A DNA stretch of 6,305 nt, taken from positions 1 to 6,305 of the forward strand of contig PIXT01000143.1 in assembly GCA_003096235.1 (NCBI GenBank), in the 5' to 3' direction. This DNA comes from Candidatus Bathyarchaeum sp. Lineage in GTDB: Archaea; Thermoproteota; Bathyarchaeia; Bathyarchaeales; Bathyarchaeaceae. Below, piece by piece: positions 33 through 6,283 of this stretch. Made by a program: the position numbers and the translations under genes. The notes beneath the pieces were generated by a model. That model had not been told where the DNA came from. It worked only from the letters and a program-made list of their open reading frames with translations, and searched no databases. The first letter of the stretch is position 1. Every line of letters begins with the position of its first letter.

Positions 33-83
33 AGACTGCGTTCTCCTCACACGAAGAGTCTTACTAGGAAATTAGGTTAAATT

Positions 84-97
84 AACTATATTAAAAA
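84..97 (-). promoter_or_regulatory. Candidate archaeal TATA box for the partial gene at the left edge
   Basis: The minus strand reads TTTTTAATATAG across 96-85, an AT-only core suitable for TBP binding. A start about 25 bases downstream would fall near position 65. That would give a leader of roughly 30 bases containing the GTGAGGAG ribosome-binding site. This rests on composition and spacing only. Confidence 0.35.
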
Positions 98-109
98 CTG
101 GTTTATTTA

Positions 110-520
110 TTATCTTTTGTTAAGTTGATAGTTTGATATTGCAGTCATGATTCTGTAACGCAGTTGATTTGAAGTGCCTTTTTTAATGAAAAAACCTCTA
201 TCAACCAAGCGCGAAAGATAGGTTGAAACAGTACTTAGTTGAATTGGTTCATTAAACTGTTTTTCATAAGACTCCTGAAGTTCTTTTGAAGAAAACCAGC
301 CCACAGGAAAATTTTTCTCTGCAACTATACGAACTTTTTCGATTTTAGGTATTTCAGAAGCTGGACGTTTTGTTCCATCATTTACGCTCGGTGTACCACC
401 CAAAAGTTCCACAAGGTCAAGTAGGCGAAGAGCCTTATCTCTAGTAACTTGACCTTCAAAGGTTATTGTGTATCGATCTCCACCATTGAATATCTCTACA
501 CGCATTTTTTTGGTAGGCAT
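110..520 (-). CDS. Small winged-helix DNA-binding protein, uncharacterised (136 aa)
   Basis: The protein has two visible parts. Residues 6-41 look like a short beta-beta-alpha unit: MRVEIFNGGDRYTITFEG, then a helix ending LLDLVELLGG. A polar linker (42-57) follows. Residues 58-125 look like a winged helix: a first helix at 60-69, a second at 77-88, a probable recognition helix at 95-110 (LSTVSTYLSRLVDRGF), and a wing with KKGTSNQLRYRI at 113-124. It is probably a DNA-binding regulator. I do not recognise a named family, although small proteins of this plan are common in TACK-type archaea. The ATG at 520-518 has a weak GGTG at 529-526; an ATG at residue 6 is the alternative start. The gene borders the proposed replication origin and is transcribed away from it. 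A role in origin function is possible but rests on position only. Confidence 0.75.
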   Translation of the reverse strand: MPTKKMRVEIFNGGDRYTITFEGQVTRDKALRLLDLVELLGGTPSVNDGTKRPASEIPKIEKVRIVAEKNFPVGWFSSKELQESYEKQFNEPIQLSTVSTYLSRLVDRGFFIKKGTSNQLRYRIMTAISNYQLNKR

Positions 521-562
521 ACGTACACCAGTTAGTAAATGGTGTTCACTATTAACATATTC

Positions 563-574
563 ACAAGTTATAGG
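563..574 (-). promoter_or_regulatory. Possible TATA box for the winged-helix gene
   Basis: The minus strand reads ACCTATAAC around 574-564, preceded by CGAAAT, which could act as a purine-containing BRE. A start about 25 bases downstream would give a leader of about 20 bases before the ATG at 520. The match is loose and unsupported by any other signal. Confidence 0.25.
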
Positions 575-652
575 TATTTCGGTAGGTTTTGTGAAGTGAA
601 AAACAATAAAAATAGCTTTAAAACGCTAAAGATTTGTTTTTTGCAATTATTT

Positions 653-704
653 AGCTTCACAAGCTTCACAATACTTGTTATTTCCAAAAAGCTAAACAAG
701 TATT
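653..704. repeat. Tandem 9-mer plus 10-base hairpin next to ORB1
   Basis: AGCTTCACA occurs twice head to tail at 653-661 and 662-670. It runs directly into a perfect 10-base inverted repeat, AATACTTGTT at 670-679 and AACAAGTATT at 695-704, separated by 15 bases. The whole structure ends 16 bases before ORB1. It could be an extra protein-binding site of the origin. There is no T-run after it and no gene pointing into it from the left, so a transcription terminator is unlikely. Confidence 0.55.
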
Positions 705-719
705 CCATGAACTTAATTT

Positions 720-739
720 TCCAGTAGAAACCAAGGGGT
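720..739 (+). other. Origin recognition box ORB1
   Basis: The plus strand reads TCCAGTAGAAACCAAGGGGT, with a further T at the 5' side and T after the G-run. It matches the archaeal ORB/mini-ORB pattern as I recall it (TTCCAGTGGAAAC, two variable bases, AGGGGT) at nearly all conserved positions, including the GAAAC core and the terminal GGGGT. Expected ligand: the Orc1/Cdc6 winged helix and AAA+ domain. Confidence 0.85.
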
Positions 740-796
740 TCAACCGTTACGTGTTAAGTGGCACAATTCAGGTTATTTTTGAAAACAATGACTGAA

Positions 797-904
797 AAAC
801 GTACAATTTGGTAATAAATTTCACAGATGTTCACAGCCGAGTTAACAAATGGGCTATTGGGTAAAATAAGAAAGACTCTTCGTGAATTAACAAGTTGTAC
901 GTAT
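797..904. repeat. Imperfect 14-base inverted repeat between ORB1 and ORB2
   Basis: AAACGTACAATTTG at 797-810 and CAAGTTGTACGTAT at 891-904 pair at 12 of 14 positions, with an uninterrupted 8-base core (ACGTACAA with TTGTACGT). The arms are roughly symmetric about the centre of the ORB1-ORB2 interval. Only the arms are repeated, not the DNA between them. Its role is unknown and it may be a chance match. Confidence 0.4.
820..836. repeat. Direct repeat TTCACAG at ten-base pitch
   Basis: TTCACAG occurs at 820-826 and again at 830-836, so equivalent bases lie on the same helical face. It sits midway between ORB1 and ORB2. A short repeat like this could be accidental. Confidence 0.35.
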
Positions 905-927
905 TTTGAAAGACAGACAGGTCTCCG

Positions 928-947
928 ACCCCTTAGTTTCCATTGTA
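928..947 (-). other. Origin recognition box ORB2 (inverted)
   Basis: The minus strand reads TACAATGGAAACTAAGGGGT. It agrees with ORB1 at 16 of 20 positions, keeping the GAAAC core, the AAGGGGT end and the TxCAxT lead. Its orientation is opposite to ORB1 and ORB3, so the G-runs of ORB1 and ORB2 point toward each other. Confidence 0.85.
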
Positions 948-975
948 ACAAAGAAGTGAAGTGAGAATTCATATT

Positions 976-1118
976 CAGCCTTAAAGTAAAAAAATTGTAG
1001 AATTAAGTCTAGTTTTTTTGATGACTAATACTAAATACTAACTTCTAACATAATTTCAACGGGATTCTTTTCAACAATAATATTTCCTTCGAAAATATTG
1101 ATTCTTTTTTTAACTAAA
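976..1118. other. AT-rich candidate duplex-unwinding element
   Basis: This segment between ORB2 and ORB3 is made largely of A and T runs. It includes a perfect tandem 7-mer AATACTA at 1027-1033 and 1034-1040, and a 7-base inverted repeat AATATTT (1079-1085) with AAATATT (1093-1099) around a short spacer. Archaeal origins normally place an easily melted element between inverted ORBs, which makes this the best candidate here. The ORB1-ORB2 interval looks less AT-rich. Confidence 0.5.
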
Positions 1119-1122
1119 CCCC

Positions 1123-1202
1123 ACAAACACCTTACTTTCTCCACCAGAAATACAGGGGTGAGCGCCCTAAAAAAACAATCTTTCGTAACAACAAACACCT
1201 TA
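1123..1202 (+). repeat. 12-base direct repeat flanking ORB3
   Basis: ACAAACACCTTA is present exactly at 1123-1134 and 1191-1202, with ORB3 lying between the copies. Extending each copy two bases leftward gives 13 of 14 identity. A partly similar string, ATAAACACCCTT, occurs at the start of the cdc6 coding region (1348-1359). The repeat may be a second class of protein-binding site within the origin. Confidence 0.5.
1140..1159 (+). other. Origin recognition box ORB3
   Basis: The plus strand reads TCCACCAGAAATACAGGGGT. It agrees with ORB1 at 15 of 20 positions, including the TCCA lead, AGAAA and AGGGGT, but diverges at the last C of the GAAAC core. It is probably a lower-affinity site than ORB1 and ORB2. 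Confidence 0.7.
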
Positions 1203-1257
1203 AAACAATTTTTATACTGAAAGTTCTATTTCCCTTTAGCTTTTTTTGCAATTTGTC

Positions 1258-1271
1258 TATTTTTTTTTATG
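1258..1271 (+). promoter_or_regulatory. Candidate promoter region for cdc6
   Basis: CTATTTTTTTTTATG at 1257-1271 contains a TATA-like TTTTTTAT about 70 bases before the proposed CTG start, giving a leader of roughly 45 bases. A second candidate, TTTTTATA at 1209-1216, would give a leader of about 100 bases. I cannot choose between them from sequence alone. Both lie inside the origin, so initiator binding to ORB3 or to the degenerate site at 1282 could affect cdc6 transcription. Confidence 0.3.
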
Positions 1272-1281
1272 ATAGTTCTTA

Positions 1282-1303
1282 TCTACTGGAAAACCAATCG
1301 AGG
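1282..1303 (+). other. Degenerate ORB-like site beside the cdc6 start
   Basis: TCTACTGGAAAACCAATCGAGG resembles the ORB left half (TCCAGTGGAAACCAA) with one extra A after the GAAA core, and it has lost the G-run. It lies between the candidate promoter and the CTG start, so it may be a half-site used for autoregulation. The insertion and the missing GGGGT make this uncertain. Confidence 0.35.
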
Positions 1304-1338
1304 CAATATCTTCACTGTCTTTAGAGGAGCCTACCAAA

Positions 1339-2574
1339 CTGAACAAAATAAACACCCTTGACGATGTTTTCGACCGGTTTCTTAGTAGCACCCACATTTT
1401 TAAAAACAGAGAAGTCCTACGACACGATTACATTCCCGAAAAACTTCCACACAGAGATAAGCAAATACACTGTTTAGGTGGAATTGTTGCTCCTGTACTT
1501 CGAGGCTCTCCATGCTCAAACGCGTTTATTTATGGAAAAACTGGAACAGGAAAAACAGCCGTAACTAAATATGTTTTAAAAAAACTTTCGTCCAAAGCAG
1601 AGCAATTAGGCGCATCTATCGGAGTATGTTATGTAAACTGTCGGTTAGCTGGAACAGAATACCGCGTTCTTTCAAGTTTATGTGAAGCTTTAGACGTTAA
1701 AGTTCCTTTTACTGGTTTGGCTCTTGGAGAAGTTTTTGACCGGTTCAAAGCTGGATTAGATTCACAAAAGAAAATTTTCATTGTTGTACTTGACGAGATA
1801 GATGCTTTGATAAAAGTTCGAGGCGATACCCTTCTTTACGAACTGACCCGAGTTAATGAGACTCTTCGTCACGGTAGAACATCCATAATAGGAATTTCAA
1901 ACGACCTTAGATTCAAAGAATTTTTAGACCCCCGTGTTTTAAGTTCACTCAGTGAAGAAGAAATAGTTTTCAGACCGTACGATGCAGCAGAGCTTCAAGA
2001 TATACTGTGGAGACGGGCGCAAATTGCTTTTTCACAGGGTGCACTTCTTGACAGTGCAGTAGCTTTGTGTGCTGCGTTAGCCGCTGCTGAACACGGTGAT
2101 GCAAGACGCGCTTTGGACCTTCTTCGAGTGGCTGGCGAACTCGCGGAACGTGATGGTGCAGACTGTGTTAGCGAAGAAAACGTTCGTCAGGCCGAAAAAC
2201 GTGTAGAACATGACCGCATTGTAGAAGTTTTAGAAAACCTTCCAGTGCACTCCAAACTAGTGCTGTGTAGCGTTTATCTTCTGGGTAAAACAAAAGTTAG
2301 TTACACAATAACCGGTGACATATACGGAATATACTGTGAACTTTGTGAACAATCTGGTGTTTCTAGTCTAACTCAACGACGAGTAAGCGGTTTAATTAGT
2401 GAATTAGATATGGTTGGTTTATTAAATGCACGAGTTGTGAGCATGGGTAGACACGGTCGGACAAAGAAGATTCGTTTGGGGATTGGTCGTAGTCTTGTTA
2501 GAAACGTGTTTAATAACAGTGACCGTTTTCGGGATCTGTTAGGTTATGTTCCACACTGTTTTGCAGAAGCTTAA
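1339..2574 (+). CDS. cdc6: Orc1/Cdc6 replication initiator with a CTG start
   Basis: This is an origin-binding AAA+ ATPase that marks the origin and helps load the MCM helicase. Numbering from CTG at 1339 gives 411 residues, the usual family length. The N-terminus is family-like: LDDVFDRFLSSTHIFKNREV, then HDYIPEKLPHR. Walker A is GKTGTGKT (66-73), Walker B is DEID (152-155), sensor 1 is around N188, the box VII-like DPRVLSSL is at 197-204, and the sensor 2 region GDARRAL is at 253-259. A C-terminal winged helix has a helix at 343-361 and a wing with GRHGRTKKIRL at 369-379. The frame is open from 1276, but its first ATG, GTG or TTG is TTG at 1717, beyond Walker A. CTG 1339 follows GAGGAG (1324-1329) by nine bases and is therefore the best start. 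The motifs are intact, so decay is unlikely. The gene is convergent with DP1. Confidence 0.93.
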   Translation: MNKINTLDDVFDRFLSSTHIFKNREVLRHDYIPEKLPHRDKQIHCLGGIVAPVLRGSPCSNAFIYGKTGTGKTAVTKYVLKKLSSKAEQLGASIGVCYVNCRLAGTEYRVLSSLCEALDVKVPFTGLALGEVFDRFKAGLDSQKKIFIVVLDEIDALIKVRGDTLLYELTRVNETLRHGRTSIIGISNDLRFKEFLDPRVLSSLSEEEIVFRPYDAAELQDILWRRAQIAFSQGALLDSAVALCAALAAAEHGDARRALDLLRVAGELAERDGADCVSEENVRQAEKRVEHDRIVEVLENLPVHSKLVLCSVYLLGKTKVSYTITGDIYGIYCELCEQSGVSSLTQRRVSGLISELDMVGLLNARVVSMGRHGRTKKIRLGIGRSLVRNVFNNSDRFRDLLGYVPHCFAEA

Positions 2575-2590: not shown

Positions 2591-4135
2591 TCACCAATTA
2601 TCTGTGAAATCTATTGACGAAATTTTTGACGTTTGAAGATTAACTATTGGTAAGATTCCTGGAGTGGGAACCAATCCCATTTTTTGTTGAAAATCTGTTT
2701 GGTCTTGCCATGCCCCAGAATTCACTATTAATGTTCCCCTGTAACTATTACATTTTAAAATGTGAACATGCCCCGCATGTAGTATATCTGGGACTCGTTC
2801 TATAACCATGAAATCCCGTTTTTCTGGTGCGATTGGAGTTCTTTCACCATAAATTGGTGCTAGATGCCTGCCCTGCAGCAAAAGTTTCATCGATTTATCT
2901 GGAGTATCAAAGCTGACGTTTGGCGCAACACCTGCTACGTCGTCTAAACTGCGTCCGTGAAAAACAAGTAATTCAACTCCGTGGAGGCTCAATGTGGATG
3001 GGTTTCCCAGTGAATGTATTTTTCGGGCTTCGTGTAGGGGTTCTGCGTATTCTTTAGGTATCGCAGGTTGAGGTAACGCTTTTCTTGATGCATCGTGGTT
3101 GCCTGGAATGATTATTACTTCTATATGTTCGGGGACTTGTTCAAGTAGCTTTGCAGCTTCTTGATATTGTTCGTATATATCTGCAATTTTTAGGCTTTCC
3201 AATTGATCTGGATAAATTCCTATACCGTCTACGATGTCTCCTGCTACTACCAAATATTTGATATGCCCTGCGATTTCTCTTATTTTATCGTTGCCGTATT
3301 TTCCTTGTAGCCAAAGCAAAAATCTGTTGAATTCTTTTTCCATAAATTTGTCGCTGCCAACATGAATATCTGACATCAGTGCTGCATAAACTGGGATTGG
3401 TGCTCTGTGGGGCGTTTTTTGTGGTATTTCTGGTAAAATAAAATCTTTTGCTATAATTAGATCGTTGTTTCCTTTTATGCCCTTTATACAGACAACTTGG
3501 TCTGAGAGTATTGATCGCGCTTTTTCAATGATTTCGTTTTCTACGTTTGAAGACACAAGCACGGTCGCAGTTGCTTCTAAATCTTCAACTCTCACGAAGA
3601 GTCTATCTTTAGATTCGATTTTTTCTGTAACCATTCCGATGATGTTGACTTTTGTTTTAACTGGCAACTTCAATGCCGATGATATCGACACTGCATCTTT
3701 GACATCTAACCTTTTTCTAAGAACTTTTGTTAACCTCTCAAAGCGATCTTGAAAATACTCTAAATATTCGTTAATTGTACCTGTTGTGCATATTTTTTTG
3801 GTTGGATCCAAAATTACTTTCAAATCGTCATCAACATCTTTGGCGTAAGGTCGGAAAGTCTTTCTTGATGCAGAACTGGTTAAAGACGAGTTGGACCTGA
3901 ACTCCGTTTCTTCTTGGACACAGGGCTCTTTTTTCATCTCTTCCAGAAACCCACGATCTATAAACAACGGTTTTTGAGGCAAGTCTTTGATTTTTTTTAC
4001 AGCCTCTTGTACTATAAAGAGAGGGTCCTCTGTTTTGGATAATGTGTTTAAGAATTCGAAAGCCTCTTTGTCCAGTTGGTATCCTGATTCTATTGTGAAG
4101 GAAACAGCTTTTTGTAGCCTTTCGCCTTCACTCAT
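2591..4135 (-). CDS. polB: DNA polymerase D (Pol II) small subunit DP1, exonuclease
   Basis: DP1 is the smaller subunit of the archaeal replicative polymerase PolD. It carries the Mre11-like 3'-5' proofreading exonuclease and pairs with the catalytic subunit DP2, which is not in this window. The 514 residues show an N-terminal helical domain (about 1-60), a Ser-rich variable linker (about 70-95), an OB fold (about 157-235) and a calcineurin-like phosphoesterase domain (about 248-500). The metal-binding motifs are all present: SDIHVGS with D256 and H258, GDIVDG with D300, GNHD at 345-348, FHGR with H393, and GHVH at 455-458. QGRHLAPIYG (421-430) and QKMGLVPTPG (484-493) are further DP1-like segments. 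The ATG at 4135 has GAGG at 4147-4144, eight bases upstream. The active site looks intact, so proofreading should be retained. The gene diverges from the PhoU-type regulator. Confidence 0.96.
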   Translation of the reverse strand: MSEGERLQKAVSFTIESGYQLDKEAFEFLNTLSKTEDPLFIVQEAVKKIKDLPQKPLFIDRGFLEEMKKEPCVQEETEFRSNSSLTSSASRKTFRPYAKDVDDDLKVILDPTKKICTTGTINEYLEYFQDRFERLTKVLRKRLDVKDAVSISSALKLPVKTKVNIIGMVTEKIESKDRLFVRVEDLEATATVLVSSNVENEIIEKARSILSDQVVCIKGIKGNNDLIIAKDFILPEIPQKTPHRAPIPVYAALMSDIHVGSDKFMEKEFNRFLLWLQGKYGNDKIREIAGHIKYLVVAGDIVDGIGIYPDQLESLKIADIYEQYQEAAKLLEQVPEHIEVIIIPGNHDASRKALPQPAIPKEYAEPLHEARKIHSLGNPSTLSLHGVELLVFHGRSLDDVAGVAPNVSFDTPDKSMKLLLQGRHLAPIYGERTPIAPEKRDFMVIERVPDILHAGHVHILKCNSYRGTLIVNSGAWQDQTDFQQKMGLVPTPGILPIVNLQTSKISSIDFTDNW

Positions 4136-4345: not shown

Positions 4346-5326
4346 ATGGACCTCCGCAAAATTCAAAAAACTAGTGGTGGAACCTTTTTTGTGTGCCTTC
4401 CCAAGTCTTGGGCTGAACGAAACGGCCTTAACCGAGGGGCTGTTGTTTCAGTAAACGAGACTGCTGACGGCTCACTTTTAATTAATCCCAAATATAATGT
4501 AGAACACACTCCTCAGGTTGCTACTATTACTCCGTCTTCGTTGCTTGATCGGGTGATTATTGAGAAATATTTGTTGGGCTACGACGTTATACACGTTCAA
4601 GCAAAAGACAGAATAAGTCCTCTCGACCGTGAACGAGTAAAACAGGCGTCAAGCCGTTTGATTGGACTTGAAATTGTTGAAGAAAATCACTCAAAAATTG
4701 TGATGCAATCCCTTTTGGAGCCTTCTACTTTTCCTCCACAAAAAATTCTTCGACGAGAATATTCTATCGTTTCTGGAATACACCGAGACGCCATAACCGC
4801 TCTTATCGAAGGTGATGTGGAATTAGCCAAAAACGTAGTTGCAAGAGACAATGAAGTAAATCGCCTGTACTTCCTTTTAGTGCGAATTCTACGAACAGTT
4901 ATCCAAAACCCTGGACTGAGCGAAAAACTTGGAATTTTACCAATAGATTGTCTAGATTACCGCTTAGCCGCAAATCTGGTAGAATCTATTGGTGACCATT
5001 CTGCTTCTATCGGAGAGACCGTGATAACCCTAAAAGGCATAAAAATTGATGACAAAGTTTCGAAACTTATTATGAAGTTGCACAAAATTGCTTATGATTC
5101 TCACGAAAACGCAATAAGCTCAGTGTTCTCGCATGATGTATCTGTTGCCGAATCAGTGCGCTCCGAGCGCGTAAATATTGAAGCTGTGTTTCATGAAATT
5201 GAAACTGCCATTCTTGACCTTCCTGCAGAAGTTGGGCGCCATCTTCTTGCGGTTGCGTCTTCTATACGTCGAATCTACGACAACAGTTTAGATATAGCTG
5301 ACCTTGTTATGCCAAAACTTCCGTAA
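4346..5326 (+). CDS. AbrB-PhoU fusion, probable phosphate-uptake regulator
   Basis: Taking ATG 4346 as the start gives 326 residues. The ATG is preceded by GAGG at 4334-4337, eight bases away. A TTG six codons upstream is possible but would place the ribosome site inside the coding region. Residues 1-48 form an AbrB/SpoVT-like swapped-hairpin DNA-binding domain (MDLRKIQKTSGGTFFVCLPK, then GLNRGAVVSV). Residues from about 138 form two PhoU-type three-helix bundles, about 138-230 and 231-322. PhoU metal-motif-like pieces are ESIGD (213-217) and DNSLD (312-316). The first repeat has DNEVN (168-172), where the usual last acidic residue is Asn. Archaeal proteins of this plan are annotated as phosphate-uptake regulators, usually near Pst transporters; no transporter is visible here, so the signal it senses is uncertain. 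It has no predicted membrane segment and should be cytoplasmic. Confidence 0.85.
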   Translation: MDLRKIQKTSGGTFFVCLPKSWAERNGLNRGAVVSVNETADGSLLINPKYNVEHTPQVATITPSSLLDRVIIEKYLLGYDVIHVQAKDRISPLDRERVKQASSRLIGLEIVEENHSKIVMQSLLEPSTFPPQKILRREYSIVSGIHRDAITALIEGDVELAKNVVARDNEVNRLYFLLVRILRTVIQNPGLSEKLGILPIDCLDYRLAANLVESIGDHSASIGETVITLKGIKIDDKVSKLIMKLHKIAYDSHENAISSVFSHDVSVAESVRSERVNIEAVFHEIETAILDLPAEVGRHLLAVASSIRRIYDNSLDIADLVMPKLP

Positions 5327-5374: not shown

Positions 5375-6283
5375 ATGGAAGAAAAGGAATTAATCGACAA
5401 AATAAACAAACTCAAAAAAGAAAAAAACGCCGTTATTTTGTCACATGTCTACCAACGGCCAGAAATATACAAAGTTGCAGATTTTATTGGCGACTCGTAC
5501 GGCTTAAGCAAAAAAGCCACACAAACAACCACAGAAATCATCGTTTTTTGTGGCGTTGACTTCATGGCTGAGTCAGCTTATATTTTAAACCCAACAAAAA
5601 CCGTTTTGATTCCAACCAAACTAGCGAACTGCCCAATGGCAGCCATGGTTGATGTTGAAGGTTTACGAAAACTAAAGAAAAAACATCCCAAAGCGGCTGT
5701 TGTAAGTTATGTTAACACCACTGCAGCTGTTAAAGCTGAATCAGATATCTGTTGCACAAGCGCAAACGCAGTACAAGTTGTTAATTCTTTAGATGAGGAC
5801 GAAGTAATTTTTGTTCCAGATTCTAACTTGGCAAATTACGTGATGAGGCACACAAAAAAGAAGATTATTCCTTGGAATGGATGGTGTTATGTTCACAACA
5901 AATTTTCTGCAAAAGGACTTGCCCAAGCAAAAACACTGCACCTTAACGCCAAAGTGTTAGTTCATCCTGAATGCAAACCCGACGTTGTGGACTTGGCTGA
6001 CGAAGTTTTTAGCACAACTGGAATGATAACCTACGTAAAACAAAGCCCCAACAACACATTCATTATTGCAACAGAAATCGGCGTAGTAGAACGGTTAAGG
6101 CTCATGTTTCCAGAAAAAATCTTTTATCAAGCACCACCAGGAGGAACCTGTCTTCAGATGAAAAAAATTACTTTGGACCTTGTTTTAGACTCTTTAGAAA
6201 AGGAGCAGTTTAAAGTCACGGTTCCAGAAGATATAAGGGTCAGAGCGAAAAAGGCTCTGGACAGAATGTTGAATGTGGCTTGA
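5375..6283 (+). CDS. nadA: Quinolinate synthase NadA
   Basis: NadA condenses iminoaspartate with dihydroxyacetone phosphate to quinolinate, the [4Fe-4S]-dependent step of de novo NAD synthesis. The 302-residue length and three-domain layout match the compact archaeal and Thermotoga-type enzymes. The expected cluster ligands are C86 (ANCPMA), C171 (GWCYVH) and C259 (PPGGTC), with the even spacing seen in this family. Substrate-site segments are SHVYQRPE (23-30), DFIGDSYGLS (36-45), YVNTTAAVKAESDICCTSAN (112-131), VHPEC (196-200) and STTG (213-216). All look intact. The ATG at 5375 lies 48 bases after the AbrB-PhoU stop, with only a weak GTGG upstream, so translation may depend on a shared transcript or a weak site. 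It overlaps the next gene by 11 bases, which points to an operon. Confidence 0.96.
   Translation: MEEKELIDKINKLKKEKNAVILSHVYQRPEIYKVADFIGDSYGLSKKATQTTTEIIVFCGVDFMAESAYILNPTKTVLIPTKLANCPMAAMVDVEGLRKLKKKHPKAAVVSYVNTTAAVKAESDICCTSANAVQVVNSLDEDEVIFVPDSNLANYVMRHTKKKIIPWNGWCYVHNKFSAKGLAQAKTLHLNAKVLVHPECKPDVVDLADEVFSTTGMITYVKQSPNNTFIIATEIGVVERLRLMFPEKIFYQAPPGGTCLQMKKITLDLVLDSLEKEQFKVTVPEDIRVRAKKALDRMLNVA

What the first reader, a model, noticed from the sequence alone, without database searches (positions are those of the whole stretch)
521..1338. Undescribed archaeal replication origin with three recognisable ORBs
Three 20-base sites share the pattern TCCA..rGAAAC.AAGGGGT. ORB1 and ORB2 agree at 16 of 20 positions, ORB1 and ORB3 at 15 of 20. 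They lie in the only long non-coding stretch, directly upstream of an orc1/cdc6 gene. The ORB type and gene context match characterised archaeal origins, and an AT-rich unwinding candidate sits between ORB2 and ORB3.
Basis: partly seen in the sequence, partly recalled or inferred. Interest (0 to 1): 0.7.

Follow-up and report, generated by a model that had tools for sequence, protein, structure and literature searches.

The report
Bathyarchaeal replication origin beside orc1
This stretch is very probably a place where a sediment archaeon starts copying its chromosome, and it carries an extra repeat array and a neighbouring gene of unknown function that recur at the same spot in distant archaeal relatives.

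Summary
The three ORBs are real: 720-739 (+), 928-947 (-), 1140-1159 (+). The published archaeal ORB motif finds exactly these (0 of 200 shuffles reach three); a matrix from relatives scores them 29.8-31.6 bits, next hit 3.7. The host is Bathyarchaeum-like (Orc1 90% identical). In 47 of 48 loci the triad keeps order and polarity; in 11 relatives 33 of 35 genome-wide hits are these sites. ORB2 and ORB3 flank the AT-rich stretch, as in Sulfolobus oriC1. So this is an orc1-adjacent origin: a known kind; my paper searches found none for this class. GC skew in three relatives gave no support; binding and initiation are untested. A 136-aa winged-helix gene (110-520, -) faces orc1 across the origin, also in 13 of 13 Nitrososphaeria-like genomes where both genes were seen. 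TTHACA repeats fill the origin (8 here; 280 against 49 expected in 47 origins); in 3 of 3 genomes tested whose winged-helix gene lies 15-20 kb away, such pairs still sit 38-40 nt from ORB1. I propose the protein as a second origin factor (about 0.4).

The parts
720..739 (+). ORB1, predicted Orc1 binding site
   Evidence: 30.2 bits; same place and strand in relatives
928..947 (-). ORB2, inverted to ORB1 and ORB3
   Evidence: 29.8 bits
1140..1159 (+). ORB3, inverted to ORB2, 179 nt before orc1
   Evidence: 31.6 bits
948..1139 (.). candidate unwinding region between ORB2 and ORB3; softest part 982-1041
   Evidence: 73% AT; AT-richest 60-mer lies between ORB2 and ORB3 in 38 of 46 origins; this interval is AT-richer than ORB1-ORB2 in 42 of 46; stability
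552..565 (+). TTHACA repeats, group A (552 TTAACA, 560 TTCACA), next to a TATA-like box for the minus-strand gene (567-573, inferred)
   Evidence: block recurs in relatives
656..670 (+). TTHACA repeats, group B: TTCACA-N3-TTCACA, 9-nt period
   Evidence: 9-nt spacing in 22 of 47 Bathyarchaeial and 8 of 13 Nitrososphaeria-type origins; other spacings (7, 8, 10, 11, 15) are also common
820..892 (+). TTHACA repeats, group C (820, 830, 842, 887), between ORB1 and ORB2
110..520 (-). 136-aa winged-helix protein gene, divergent to orc1
   Evidence: beside the origin in 50 of 52 class loci anchored on orc1, near-copies included; one match in each of the 143 of 201 class genomes where found; winged helix at about residues 54-130
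1339..2574 (+). orc1/cdc6 initiator gene, Orc1-1 type; probable CTG start
   Evidence: relatives have ATG, CTG or (L011) GTG at this place
2591..4135 (-). DNA polymerase D small subunit gene, replication-gene neighbourhood

Best explanation
The region 521-1338 is the orc1-adjacent chromosomal replication origin (oriC1 type) of a Bathyarchaeum-like archaeon. Orc1 made from the neighbouring gene binds the three ORBs. ORB2 and ORB3, inverted to each other, hold Orc1 on both sides of the AT-rich stretch 948-1139 and recruit two MCM helicases there, where DNA first opens; ORB1 is an accessory site. Shown here: sequence, polarity, conservation, near-uniqueness in relatives and gene context. Inferred from Sulfolobus oriC1: binding, MCM loading, initiation and the roles of the single sites. 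Further inference (about 0.4): the winged-helix protein encoded across the origin binds the TTHACA repeats around ORB1 and regulates or shapes the origin, as UBP, IHF or Fis do elsewhere.
For: Published ORB motif: exactly three hits, chance 0.01; held-out matrix 29.8-31.6 bits against 3.7 for the next hit. + - + order in 47 of 48 loci, and in 36 of 37 not used to derive the pattern. 33 of 35 genome-wide hits in 11 relatives lie at the origin. Orc1-1 type initiator. AT-richest stretch between ORB2 and ORB3 in 38 of 46. Winged-helix gene and TTHACA repeats shared with Nitrosopumilus-type origins; TTCACA pairs at the origin in 3 of 3 tested genomes whose winged-helix gene is 15-20 kb away; of 8 tested genomes without that gene, 4 have ORBs by orc1 but no strict TTCACA pair there.
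Against: No GC-skew change at the locus in three half-sampled relatives. No experiment: Orc1 binding, origin firing and any role of the winged-helix protein are untested. The softest 60-mer of the window lies outside the origin. Of the 8 genomes without the winged-helix gene, G195 and G199 do carry TTCACA pairs at the ORBs (contig ends not checked), and G065 and G107 show neither ORBs (up to 2 mismatches) nor pairs beside orc1. L053 shows two ORBs only. In a more distant subgroup (G046, G086, G116) the layout differs.
Confidence: 0.88

Rival explanations
1. The ORBs are only an autoregulatory operator of orc1; replication starts elsewhere.
For: ORB3 lies 179 nt before orc1; initiators often regulate their own genes (general knowledge).
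Against: Three sites over 440 nt with inverted polarity around an AT-rich stretch, the anatomy of a mapped origin. In G046, G086 and G116, where the winged-helix gene lies about 4 kb from orc1, a site at 0, 2 and 0 mismatches sits about 130 nt from the winged-helix gene and none at up to 2 mismatches lies within 2 kb upstream of orc1. Only 2 of 35 hits lie elsewhere in 11 genomes.
Confidence: 0.05
2. It is a relic or dormant origin; replication uses other origins or recombination.
For: Some archaea live without origins (PMC7617429, passages); skew is flat; 9 of 11 relatives have a second Orc1 paralogue.
Against: A triad fixed in order in 47 of 48 loci, with ORB1 190-208 nt from the winged-helix gene in 42 of 48, implies selection on use.
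Confidence: 0.07
3. The TTHACA repeats are only the promoter-operator of the winged-helix gene, with no part in replication.
For: Group A overlaps the probable promoter of that gene; the protein resembles small repressors in fold.
Against: Groups B and C lie 136-372 nt from its start, around ORB1; in G236, G229 and G243 the gene is 15-20 kb away yet a TTCACA pair sits 38-40 nt from ORB1.
Confidence: 0.25
4. The TTHACA repeats bind another factor (second Orc1 paralogue, chromatin protein or transcription factor).
For: No binding data; two assemblies without the winged-helix gene (G195, G199) have TTCACA pairs at the ORBs.
Against: Repeats and this gene occur together at origins of two divergent lineages, and G015, G027, G029 and G061, which lack the gene, have ORBs at orc1 but no strict pair there.
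Confidence: 0.3

Closest known systems
Sulfolobus oriC1 (Orc1-1, three ORBs)
   Same: Three ORBs next to an Orc1-1 type gene; ORB2 and ORB3 inverted around the AT-rich region (PMC12141716 introduction).
   Different: The ORB2-ORB3 interval is 192 nt here, while the whole ORB3-DUE-ORB2 region scanned in S. islandicus is 130 bp; TTHACA arrays and an opposed winged-helix gene; ucm not tested.
Nitrosopumilus-type origin (N. maritimus has a single mapped origin, reviews)
   Same: Winged-helix gene, TTHACA repeats, ORB-like sites and orc1 in the same order, with a (-) AT-rich (+) pair before orc1.
   Different: Four ORB-like sites with two in tandem 61-62 nt apart; shorter gap (468-509 nt between hits); repeats on both strands, some forming TGTTAACA palindromes.
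UBP/ucm of Sulfolobales
   Same: A small non-initiator protein acting at the origin: proposed analogy only.
   Different: UBP binds DNA by beta-hairpins; this is a predicted winged helix.
WhiP (winged-helix initiator of Sulfolobus oriC3)
   Same: Winged-helix gene beside an origin.
   Different: WhiP specifies its own origin; this gene shares an Orc1 origin. Not compared by sequence.

Membership tests
Archaeal Orc1/Cdc6-ORB origin | adjacent orc1/cdc6 gene of Orc1-1 type | tested here: met
   395 bits to S. solfataricus Cdc6-1, 365 to the A. pernix protein, 190 to Cdc6-3
Archaeal Orc1/Cdc6-ORB origin | several sites of the ORB consensus in the intergenic region | tested here: met
Archaeal Orc1/Cdc6-ORB origin | inverted ORBs flanking an AT-rich region | tested here: met
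Archaeal Orc1/Cdc6-ORB origin | ORBs concentrated at the origin, not scattered | tested here: met
   in 11 relatives (33 of 35 hits); the window's own genome is not held
Archaeal Orc1/Cdc6-ORB origin | skew inflection at the locus | tested here: inconclusive
   no inflection, but whole-chromosome skew is not above permutation in any of 3 relatives
Archaeal Orc1/Cdc6-ORB origin | Orc1 binds the sites and replication starts here | not testable with these tools
   needs footprinting and marker-frequency data
Sulfolobus oriC1 with ucm/UBP | ucm motif in the AT-rich region and a UBP homologue | not tested
   the ucm letters are not in the sections read; the winged-helix model differs from the described UBP fold
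Penicillinase repressor (BlaI/MecI) family, for the winged-helix protein | Pfam PF03965 above gathering score | tested here: not met
   18.5 bits against 22.6
WhiP | sequence relationship to WhiP/Cdt1 | not tested
   no WhiP sequence was compared

The most novel reading that the evidence does not exclude
The winged-helix protein is a dedicated second origin factor: it reads directional TTHACA repeats around ORB1, acts with Orc1 at the main chromosomal origin, and was present in the common ancestor of Bathyarchaeia and Nitrososphaeria. The origin would then be a two-factor replicator, iteron-like array plus ORBs, of a kind I know of no description for in these lineages.
Probability: 0.4. Interest if true: 0.8.

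Novelty: new variant of a known kind. Interest (0 to 1): 0.52.

Why it matters
A 2014 review counts mapped archaeal origins in about a dozen species, and my searches found none for Bathyarchaeia, abundant and mostly uncultured archaea. A fixed three-ORB layout gives an origin locator for at least the closer part of this class. [quoted passage not shown] this gene and its repeats are a concrete candidate, and related genes lie at predicted origins of Nitrosopumilus, which has cultured members, so it can be tested.

Full report
OBSERVATION. The window holds, left to right, a 136-aa minus-strand ORF (110-520), an 818-nt gap, orc1/cdc6 (1339-2574, +), the DNA polymerase D small subunit gene (2591-4135, -), a PhoU-domain gene (4346-5326, +) and nadA (5375-6283, +). 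The three ORBs are at 720 (+), 928 (-) and 1140 (+). The published common archaeal ORB motif (PMC4164010, passages seen) at up to 3 mismatches hits exactly these three; shuffles give 0.01 on average and 0 of 200 reach three. A matrix from 135 sites of 45 relatives without the window scores 29.8-31.6 bits; next hit 3.7; best of 20 shuffled windows 8.0.

WHOSE IT IS. The Orc1 protein is 90% identical to Orc1 in two Candidatus Bathyarchaeum MAGs; 11 Bathyarchaeota loci and one Thermoplasmata locus were found. No whole genome is held for the window. By sequence it is of the Orc1-1 type: S. solfataricus Cdc6-1 395 bits, A. pernix 365, Cdc6-3 190.

CONSERVATION. All 11 Bathyarchaeota loci carry exactly three sites, in + - + order, and none elsewhere in 9.6-17 kb; L012 has none. 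Genome-wide in those 11 genomes the pattern at up to 1 mismatch has 35 hits, 33 of them the three origin sites (the pattern was made from them, so the absence elsewhere is the informative part); the reversed control pattern has 4. Of 48 loci anchored on the minus-strand gene (window included, near-duplicates dropped), 47 show + - + at up to 3 mismatches; 36 of the 37 not used to derive the pattern do. L053 has two sites, L060 has a 596-nt first gap, and eight loci show an extra weak site (2-3 mismatches), in L055 an inverted one overlapping ORB3. From the 5' end of the minus-strand gene's match to ORB1 there are 155-228 nt, and 190-208 in 42 of 48. These loci are mostly the closer relatives: they come, from the best matches, and from 16 further genomes that I picked from its list.

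UNWINDING REGION. The AT-richest 60-mer falls between ORB2 and ORB3 in 38 of 46 origins, upstream of ORB1 in 5, between ORB1 and ORB2 in 2 and after ORB3 in 1; ORB2-ORB3 is AT-richer than ORB1-ORB2 in 42 of 46 and than the part upstream of ORB1 in 37 of 46. In the window the softest origin 60-mer is 982-1041, though 71-130 outside the origin is slightly softer. The TCCA ends of ORB2 and ORB3 face this region. In Sulfolobus oriC1 three ORBs bind Orc1-1, ORB2 and ORB3 are inverted around the AT-rich region, and both are needed (PMC12141716: introduction, first part of results, the section on UBP structure and discussion read). The mechanism, Orc1 on ORB2 and ORB3 loading two MCM rings in between, is carried over from there and not shown here.

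SKEW. In three relatives, half of whose chromosome letters were sampled, cumulative GC skew is not larger than in permuted order (p 0.32, 0.11, 0.56) and the origin is unremarkable. This does not support the origin, but it had little power.

WINGED-HELIX GENE. The minus-strand gene has no Pfam family above cut-off and its relatives are called hypothetical protein wherever the 120 listed rows give a name. It lies beside the origin, divergent from orc1, in 50 of 52 Bathyarchaeial loci anchored on orc1, near-copies included; the misses are L054 (contig starts at the origin) and L204 (no match in that genome). It is found in 143 of 201 class genomes, once in each, and in 184 of 300 phylum genomes, with two matches in one genome among the rows listed; many genomes are incomplete. 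The model has a confident winged helix (about residues 54-130) and a weakly modelled N-terminal part.

BEYOND THE CLASS. I fetched 20 further phylum genomes by the place of this gene, choosing long contigs, so this set tests neighbourhood, not frequency. All 20 have two tandem ORB-like sites 61-62 nt apart, and all 13 have one at orc1, at up to 4 mismatches, where single hits elsewhere are common. An inverted site before an AT-rich stretch passes the scan in 10 of the 13, while its k-mers TTCCACTC and CACACACC are in 13 of 13. The contig of L226 is 1,645,259 bases, the length I recall for N. maritimus; a review lists N. maritimus at 1645 kb with one origin. No paper with that exact number was found and the mapping paper is not held.

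TTHACA REPEATS. From the gene start to ORB2 the window has eight TTHACA on the + strand (552, 560, 656, 665, 820, 830, 842, 887). In 47 Bathyarchaeial origins there are 280 forward and 65 reverse, against 49 forward (sd 6.3) in first-order resamples; in the first 310 nt of 13 Nitrososphaeria-type origins 81 forward and 60 reverse against 9.4 (sd 3.1). A 9-nt spacing occurs in 22 of 47 and 8 of 13; 11 nt in 18 of 47 and 8 of 13; in Bathyarchaeia 7, 8, 10 and 15 nt are also frequent, so the period is not strict. TTCACAAG is in 34 of 46 segments upstream of ORB1 against 0.3 expected. In three relatives the origin has more TTHACA in 450 nt (6, 6, 7) than any other place in the sampled half genome (5, 5, 4), while counts of TTCACA alone are not unique to the origin. 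Related origins are not independent samples; the agreement of the two lineages is the stronger point.

IS IT AN ORIGIN ELEMENT? In G236, G229 and G243 the gene is 15-20 kb from orc1, the ORBs keep the + - + order, and a TTCACA pair sits 38, 40 and 39 nt from ORB1 (G229 has two more pairs nearby on the other strand). So the repeats are not just that gene's promoter. Of eight chosen class genomes with an Orc1-1 gene but no match for the winged-helix gene, G015, G027, G029 and G061 have one to three ORBs at orc1 and no strict repeat pair there; G065 and G107 show neither; G195 and G199 show both ORBs and pairs, which counts against strict co-occurrence unless their contigs end there. For G015 the sequence shows 1 forward and 1 reverse TTHACA in 1 kb. 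In G046, G086 and G116, of a more distant subgroup, the gene lies about 4 kb from orc1; a site at 0, 2 and 0 mismatches sits 128-129 nt from the winged-helix gene, with a repeat pair only in G116, and further 1-2 mismatch sites lie 2.3-3.5 kb upstream of orc1. At 2 mismatches such sites are no commoner than the reversed control, so only the two perfect ones carry weight.

VERDICT. Undescribed means only that my paper searches listed none; DoriC was not searchable. The winged-helix gene and repeat array are the new part. That the protein binds the repeats is a hypothesis.

Noticed in passing
window 1321-1341: orc1 seems to start at CTG (1339) behind GAGGAG; L001, L002 and L004 also have CTG there, L003, L005-L007, L009 and L010 have ATG, and L011 GTG.
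   Followed up: partly
G001-G011: 9 of 11 relatives carry a second Orc1 paralogue at 27-32% identity away from this origin (that of G007 is partial); around the G004 copy (L209) there is no TTHACA cluster.
   Followed up: partly
L224, L225, L233 and others, intergenic region: Nitrososphaeria-type origins carry TTTGTTAAC/TGTTAACA palindromes (TTTGTTAA, TTGTTAAC and TGTTAACA in 13 of 13), besides the direct TTHACA repeats.
   Followed up: no
window 4346-5326: The PhoU-domain gene begins with a MazE/AbrB-like stretch just below the Pfam cut-off (22.8 against 24.7 bits), a possible DNA-binding PhoU regulator.
   Followed up: no
window 71-130: The least stable 60-mer of the window lies around the 3' end of the winged-helix gene, outside the origin.
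   Followed up: no
G046, G086, G116: In this subgroup the winged-helix gene and orc1 are about 4 kb apart and an ORB or ORB-like site lies 128-129 nt from the winged-helix gene.
   Followed up: partly
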